A stretch of 64,000 nt of DNA, from NCBI GenBank assembly GCA_947475895.1, contig CANJMF010000002.1, positions 1 to 64,000 of the forward strand, given 5' to 3'. Position 1 is the stretch's first letter; every line of letters starts with the position of its first letter. Of the stretch, positions 2,603 to 57,541 are shown piece by piece. The stretch is from Fidelibacterota bacterium (lineage in GTDB: Bacteria; Pseudomonadota; Alphaproteobacteria; Rhodospirillales; Rhodospirillaceae). The notes beneath the pieces are model-generated. The model made no database searches. It was not told the origin of the DNA and was given only the letters and a program-made list of their open reading frames with translations. Made by a program: the position numbers and the translations under genes.

Positions 2603-2698
2603 GCGCCATAAGTTCATGGGGTCGTTTGTCAGGCCGTATCCGCCTGCCGTTTCAACGCCTTCGTGGGTTGCGATTCATAAGTTCATGGGCTCGTTTTC
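2603..2698 (+). repeat. 96-bp dispersed element, copy A
   Basis: Two direct repeats built on CATAAGTTCATGGG(G/C)TCGTTT start at 2607 and 2676, 69 bp apart. The outer 26 bp (2603-2628) and 27 bp (2672-2698) are identical to copy B at 57446-57541 read in reverse; the 43 bp between them differ completely in sequence but not in length. Copy A lies between divergent genes, about 50 bp upstream of the minus-strand membrane protein and about 80 bp upstream of the plus-strand one. The 12-mer CATAAGTTCATG is an imperfect palindrome, as expected of a protein-binding site. Confidence 0.85.
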
Positions 2699-57445: not shown

Positions 57446-57541
57446 GAAAACGAGCCCATGAACTTATGAATCTTGAGGTGTTAGGGGACTGATTTCGCGC
57501 ACGTTTTGGCGCTGGCAAACGACCCCATGAACTTATGGCGC
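57446..57541 (-). repeat. 96-bp dispersed element, copy B
   Basis: Same size and ends as copy A (2603-2698) in inverted orientation, central 43 bp unrelated. It exactly fills the gap between two convergent genes: it begins 9 bp after the TonB-receptor stop and ends at the base before the stop codon of the cyclase gene. A role as a two-way terminator is not supported because copy A lies between divergent genes. Confidence 0.85.

What the first reader, a model, noticed from the sequence alone, without database searches (positions are those of the whole stretch)
2603..2698. A 96-bp element with fixed ends and a variable 43-bp centre, present twice in inverse orientation
Copy A (2603-2698) and copy B (57446-57541, reversed) share identical outer 26 and 27 bp, each built on CATAAGTTCATGGG(G/C)TCGTTT as two direct repeats exactly 69 bp apart, while the 43 bp between them are unrelated yet equal in length. 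Strict spacing with free inner sequence suggests a protein that bridges two sites, a structural RNA, or a recombination/mobile cassette carrying an exchangeable middle. The core CATAAGTTCATG is an imperfect palindrome. Copies lie in different contexts (divergent and convergent gaps), arguing against a simple terminator or promoter.
Basis: seen in the sequence. Interest (0 to 1): 0.72.

Follow-up and report, generated by a model that had tools for sequence, protein, structure and literature searches.

The report
Dispersed paired-repeat DNA sites with IHF
About twenty copies of a 96-base stretch sit between genes in this bacterium, each with two near-identical sites a fixed distance apart and, between them, a likely landing place for the DNA-bending protein IHF, so they probably hold a folded protein-DNA complex whose main protein is not yet known.

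Summary
The genome has 20 full copies, all with two direct repeats exactly 69 bp apart, plus one half copy. The centre is not free. Fifteen copies share a diverged A-type centre with an IHF-like site. Four B-type copies have an unrelated centre with an IHF-like site on the other strand. Relatives were found in a second G000 family and in one sister genus (g22), where 6 of 14 two-repeat elements carry a perfect IHF consensus against 0 of 630 control windows. Orthologous g22 copies keep spacing (68-69 bp) and, in two of three sets, the IHF site, while the rest of the centre diverges. No congener showed a pair; at hisS-prfA 18 of 18 congeners are 101-121 bp shorter. A conserved RNA fold, a RAYT link and the known repeat families tested do not fit. 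Best reading: a dispersed, lineage-specific DNA element in which an unidentified protein binds two (or four) sites that IHF folds together. It works like E. coli datA, P1 parS or BIME-1 without being shown to belong to any. The protein, the route of spread and the benefit are unknown.

The parts
2603..2698 (+). element copy A, in a divergent gap
2607..2627 (+). left direct repeat of copy A
   Evidence: 0 mismatches
2650..2662 (+). IHF-like site of copy A (TTTCAACGCCTTC, 2 mismatches to WATCARNNNNTTR)
2676..2696 (+). right direct repeat of copy A
   Evidence: 0 mismatches
57446..57541 (-). element copy B, in a convergent gap
57517..57537 (-). left direct repeat of copy B
   Evidence: 0 mismatches
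57482..57494 (-). IHF-like site of copy B (AATCAGTCCCCTA, 1 mismatch)
57448..57468 (-). right direct repeat of copy B
   Evidence: 0 mismatches

Best explanation
Each copy is a bipartite protein-binding site in DNA. A sequence-specific protein, not identified, binds the two 21-bp direct repeats. IHF binds the centre and bends the DNA sharply, so that the two bound sites meet in a compact looped complex. Related elements in a sister genus use the same two-site form and a four-site form. The element spread to intergenic places in the G000 lineage; afterwards the ends, the spacing and the IHF site were kept by selection while the rest of the centre drifted or was exchanged. Shown by sequence: the family, the fixed spacing, the IHF-like site at a fixed place, the contrast between ends and centre, the shorter sites in congeners. 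Inferred: binding by IHF, the looped complex, the unknown protein, selection. Not known: what the cell or the element gains.
For: 20 of 20 full copies at exactly 69 bp, found without any condition on spacing. Ends 93.7% identical, centre 42.2%, flanks 26.8% over 190 pairs. IHF consensus in the centre: G000 family 1, 10 of 20 with at most 1 mismatch versus 43 of 1650 flank windows and 4.6% of 4000 shuffled centres; g22 two-repeat elements, 6 of 14 perfect and 10 of 14 with at most 1 versus 0 and 13 of 630 windows, best match at position 26/27 in 13 of 14, moving with the spacing so that its distance to the right repeat stays the same; G000 family 2, 6 of 12 with at most 1 versus 5 of 552 windows, at position 25/26 in all 9 that have at most 2 mismatches. 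Orthologous sets A and C of g22 keep the site (0, 0, 0, 1 and 0, 1 mismatches) while most other centre positions differ. In G070 the first array step is 10 bp longer, about one helical turn. The IHF consensus TAAnnnnTTGATW and datA's IHF-spaced boxes were read in passages of PMC10380432.
Against: No binding protein or candidate gene was found; IHF binding is predicted only. With at most 2 mismatches the family-1 signal is weaker (20 of 20 versus 317 of 1650 windows and 34% of shuffled centres). Over the 20 copies position 54, a T in the consensus, is C or A in 16. Three of 12 family-2 copies and L199 have nothing better than 3 mismatches; set B of the orthologues has 2, 3 and 2. Copies share ancestry and control windows come from overlapping loci, so the counts are not independent. 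The g22 two-repeat elements were fetched with a pattern that demands both repeat cores exactly, so the identity of their cores across species is partly by construction. Neighbouring genes, judged by eye, show no common function (only 4 window proteins were run on Pfam).
Confidence: 0.55

Rival explanations
1. Selfish non-autonomous mobile element: the repeats are transposase-binding ends and IHF helps build the transposition complex; conservation only reflects mobility or repeated rewriting of copies.
For: No pair was found in 18 congeners. At hisS-prfA 18 of 18 congeners are 101-121 bp shorter than G000; at lpd-lipA 7 of 18 are 99-105 bp shorter, 3 are 69-85 bp shorter and 8 are longer because other DNA lies there. 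Copies lie between genes, overlapping called gene ends by at most 14 bp. Arrays changed together in G070.
Against: Ends are direct, not inverted, repeats; no target-site duplication seen; centres are only 51% identical even within the A type while ends are 94%; orthologous copies persist across species; no transposase was linked. RAYT (PF01797) is absent from 7 of 7 g22 genomes and present in 17 of 18 congeners without elements; no other transposase family was searched.
Confidence: 0.29
2. Small RNA or 3' untranslated RNA element whose repeats pair with each other.
For: The four-repeat g22 form folds better than column-shuffled controls on the forward strand (-17.4 versus -2.2, z -9.4; reverse z -5.8), and G070 arrays z -4.4 forward, -1.1 reverse. 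AGUUCAUGGGCU can pair with itself using G-U pairs (by eye).
Against: In the family asked about the consensus fold is -1.39 kcal/mol with no covariation (z -2.6 forward, -1.7 reverse). In the four-repeat form only 1 of 25 pairs has a two-sided change. The two repeats tend to differ at position 15 (15 of 20, Fisher p 0.028), which breaks a pair. No Rfam match in the window.
Confidence: 0.1
3. Neutral leftover of an old repeat family with no present role.
For: No shared gene function seen, no pair in congeners.
Against: Neutral drift would erode ends as fast as centres; a model search at E up to 1 (150 of 712 candidates scored) found no eroded full pair of family 1, only one half copy and four matches to family 2.
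Confidence: 0.05

Closest known systems
BIME-1 (RIB/RIP) of enterobacteria
   Same: Dispersed intergenic unit: two repeat units flanking an IHF-binding segment (passages of PMC2817692; the names RIB and RIP are recalled).
   Different: BIME-1 has two REPs in opposite orientation; here direct repeats at an exact 69 bp, and no RAYT in g22.
E. coli datA
   Same: Binding boxes and an IHF site whose spacing matters; loop formation postulated (passages of PMC10380432).
   Different: datA uses DnaA boxes; the repeats here do not look like DnaA boxes (box recalled), and there are about 20 copies.
P1 plasmid parS
   Same: Protein boxes on both arms of an IHF bend (recalled; only a reference title was seen).
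   Different: One site per plasmid with other boxes; no ParB link was tested here.
Correia/NEMIS elements
   Same: Small intergenic mobile repeat; the 155-bp form carries an IHF site (passages of PMC2229807).
   Different: Correia has 24-bp terminal inverted repeats and target-site duplication.
CIR of Caulobacter and Brucella
   Same: Intergenic repeats of about 110 bp with GANTC (passages of PMC2229807; the original paper was not held).
   Different: CIR has two inverted-repeat arms; no such fold here. CIR sequences themselves were not compared.

Membership tests
BIME-1 / RIB | two oppositely oriented repeat units | tested here: not met
   20 of 20 are direct repeats
BIME-1 / RIB | IHF site between the units | tested here: met
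   in silico only
REP/RAYT elements | cognate RAYT in genomes that carry the repeat | tested here: not met
   0 of 7 g22 genomes; 1 match in G000, also in 17 of 18 congeners without elements
Correia / MITE | terminal inverted repeats | tested here: not met
   ends are direct repeats, flanks carry no consensus
Correia / MITE | target-site duplication | tested here: inconclusive
   none seen by eye against two sites in diverged congeners
CIR | two inverted-repeat arms | tested here: not met
   no consensus fold in family 1
CIR | GANTC sites | tested here: inconclusive
   14 of 20 copies have at least one; 9.9 per kb versus 2.25, at two shared positions; centres 7 versus shuffled mean 3.4, maximum 11
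datA | DnaA boxes | tested here: not met
   by eye in the repeat sequence; DnaA box recalled
P1-type parS | bound by a ParB | not testable with these tools
   no binding data

The most novel reading that the evidence does not exclude
A lineage-specific chromosome-wide network of IHF-folded two-site and four-site complexes built by a new end-binding protein, kept at the same loci across species and changed in step across loci when spacing shifts (27/28/29 to 37/28/30, the first step one helical turn): a new chromosome-organising or replication/segregation system, or a self-rewriting element family.
Probability: 0.25. Interest if true: 0.82.

Novelty: new variant of a known kind. Interest (0 to 1): 0.6.

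Why it matters
If true, it is a clean natural case in which site pairs, spacing and an architectural bend are kept while the rest is free, with orthologous and concerted variation from which the rules can be read. It points to an unknown DNA-binding protein with tens of sites per genome. One search for six motif strings in the held library gave 4 papers, unrelated by title and abstract start; nothing wider was searched for the motif.

Tried and rejected
RNA fold for family 1: no. Small ORF: the repeats read in one frame (HKFMGSF) but most copies have an in-frame stop (by eye). RAYT as driver: the distribution is the wrong way round. Orientation against replication: 16 of 20 G000 copies have negative GC skew in stretches of up to 20 kb, 18 of 20 at 3 kb, but G070 shows 18 of 37 (p 1.0), so no consistent bias; in G070 the 10 loci with absolute skew of 0.04 or more are all negative, a post hoc subset that I do not use. 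Plasmids: no match. Phages: one 31-base match, E 0.01, mostly outside the element. IMG/VR: 3 and 8 stretches, none at 69 bp; of the 8, seven are similar stretches at spacing 57, judged coding and chance by eye, and one is L337; the close-spaced pattern gave 0. GTDB contigs: 14 stretches, none at 69 bp, own genome possibly left out. Class sample: 1 of 385, the own genome, with g22 not sampled. Rows dropped: of 18 family-2 rows 12 left-type ones were scored; three right repeats, L173, L181 and L182 were not. A/B grouping of the 20 copies was made by eye after seeing them. Papers seen only as passages or listings and not used further: PMC10969869, PMC11150451. Naming the organism: not possible with these handles.

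Full report
OBSERVATION. The repeat occurs 4 times in the window with 0 expected. In the window's genome (G000, 3.30 Mb in 36 contigs) there are 42 matches at up to 3 mismatches and none for the reversed pattern. Forty form 20 pairs, each in direct orientation and exactly 69 bp apart; no spacing was asked for. Of those 40 repeats 28, 7, 4 and 1 have 0, 1, 2 and 3 mismatches, so they do not pile up at the threshold. A sequence model of the 20 copies (R1) finds the same 20, one half copy at C10:3059-3135 that keeps centre and right repeat, and four weak matches (E 0.006 to 0.27) that belong to a second family. That search scored 150 of 712 candidates.

ANATOMY. Over all 190 pairs of copies the two repeats are 93.7% identical, the centre (positions 27-65) 42.2% and the flanks 26.8%. 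Fifteen copies, both window copies among them, share an A-type centre: GCCAG.GCGAAAAC, AATCA(A/G), CTA, GATT; within this group ends are 94.4% and centres 51.3% identical. Four copies (L006, L009, L015, L030) have a B-type centre; A versus B centres are 26.6% identical, no more than flanks, with ends 93.5% identical. L005 fits neither group well. The grouping is mine, by eye. So the middle is exchangeable but not free. At position 15 the two repeats tend to differ, one G and one C (15 of 20; Fisher p 0.028), which I cannot explain.

IHF-LIKE SITE. The conserved A-type letters follow the IHF consensus WATCARNNNNTTR save one letter: W at 44, A, T, C, A, R at 49, then T at 55 and A at 56, with C or A at 54 in 16 of 20 copies. 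Best matches in the 48-bp centres: 10 of 20 with one mismatch and 10 with two. Of 1650 flank windows 43 have at most one and 317 at most two; of 4000 shuffled centres 4.6% and 34%. In three of the four B-type copies the best match lies on the other strand at position 32; for L015 the best match is at 52, but position 32 scores two mismatches. The consensus, its bend and datA were checked in passages of PMC10380432.

RELATIVES. Of 73 genomes of the family, 7 have a match at E up to 0.05: G000, five genomes of genus g22, and one short weak match in G008. In g22, GTGCATGGG(C/G)T(C/T)GTT has 18-78 hits at up to one mismatch in six of seven species; G067 has 3. Two forms occur. Two-repeat form: 14 of the 24 pairs, 11 spaced 69 and three spaced 68 bp; 6 of 14 have a perfect YAANNNNYTGATW and 10 of 14 at most one mismatch, against 0 and 13 of 630 control windows. 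The best match starts at 27 when spacing is 69 and at 26 when it is 68 (13 of 14; L207's is elsewhere), so its distance to the right repeat is constant. Four-repeat form: of 20 stretches that I picked as clusters, 16 have spacings 27/28/29, three show 28/29 and one is a two-repeat element. In G000's second family 6 of 12 left-type copies have at most one mismatch, against 5 of 552 windows; the nine with at most two lie at position 25 or 26, the other three have no good site. The pair pattern was found in 1 of 385 genomes sampled across the class, the own genome; g22 was not in that sample.

SELECTION. Three two-repeat loci are shared between g22 species (four, three and two species). Spacing stays at 68-69 bp. 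The IHF site is kept in sets A (0, 0, 0, 1 mismatches) and C (0, 1) and is weak in B (2, 3, 2). Other centre positions differ widely; sets A and C also show a second IHF-like site about 31 bp upstream, seen by eye. The repeat cores are identical too, but fetched only elements with both cores intact, so that identity is partly by construction. In G070, arrays lie at six loci orthologous to G065/G066 arrays; 9 of 10 arrays examined have spacings 37/28/30, the tenth 38/30, with different letters between the repeats. The list of 78 G070 hits shows no steps of 27, 29, 57 or 84 bp. So these dispersed arrays changed together. The first step grew by 10 bp, about one helical turn, which suits a protein complex on DNA. 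Separate insertion of another element type at the same loci is not excluded.

SPREAD. Searches of 18 congeners, some incomplete, showed no pair. At hisS-prfA all 18 are 101-121 bp shorter than G000, from the BLAST coordinates (sequences). At lpd-lipA 7 of 18 (G001, G006, G009, G011, G012, G013, G015) are 99-105 bp shorter, three (G008, G016, G018) 69-85 bp shorter, and eight are longer because other DNA lies there. No target-site duplication is visible. Gene context of the 20 copies: 8 tandem forward, 7 convergent, 3 tandem reverse, 2 divergent. In four copies (L007, L008, L014, L026) the element's own TAA ends the upstream gene. Gene calls are from a simple codon model.

WHAT IT IS NOT. RNA: consensus fold -1.39 kcal/mol without covariation. 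The four-repeat g22 form folds better than shuffled columns (z -9.4 forward, -5.8 reverse) with almost no covariation, so RNA remains a minor rival there. RAYT: 18 of 27 genomes have it, all in the window's genus, none in g22. Orientation to replication: suggestive in G000, absent in G070.

READING. Two or four sites for one protein with IHF as the bend between them explains spacing, ends, the two centre types and the kept IHF site. It works like datA, parS or BIME-1. It fails a defining feature of BIME-1, REP/RAYT, Correia, CIR and datA; parS could not be tested. The protein is the missing piece. On rechecking, the fetch bias in the orthologues and the stronger hisS-prfA result moved the best reading from 0.58 to 0.55 and the mobile-element rival from 0.27 to 0.29.

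Noticed in passing
G000 family 2, e.g. L168-L182: Second family in the same genome, TGCATGGGGTTGTTT...TTTCTGTAACTG, with some copies whose right repeat at 69 bp is missing and which look longer (about 150 bp).
   Followed up: partly
G070 arrays, e.g. L212, L213, L214: The end of the array is followed by short tandem duplications of a CTCG...GTCGAGCCC-like unit and A-rich DNA.
   Followed up: no
L258 and L259-L277 (hisS-prfA): The C-terminus of HisS at the element differs from that of congeners, as if the insertion replaced the last few codons.
   Followed up: partly
L337:8290-8580 (IMG/VR contig from record 2974715732): Repeats CTCATGGGGTTGTTGAAGTGA 67 bp apart with other repeated DNA between, possibly unrelated.
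   Followed up: no
G000 family 1, positions 43 and 66: GANTC sites at two shared positions (6 and 12 of 20 copies).
   Followed up: partly
G008:C69:4490-4510 (L031): Single weak repeat-like match GATAAGTTTATGGGGTCGTGT in one congener, followed by GCAAGGCC, similar to A-type centres.
   Followed up: no
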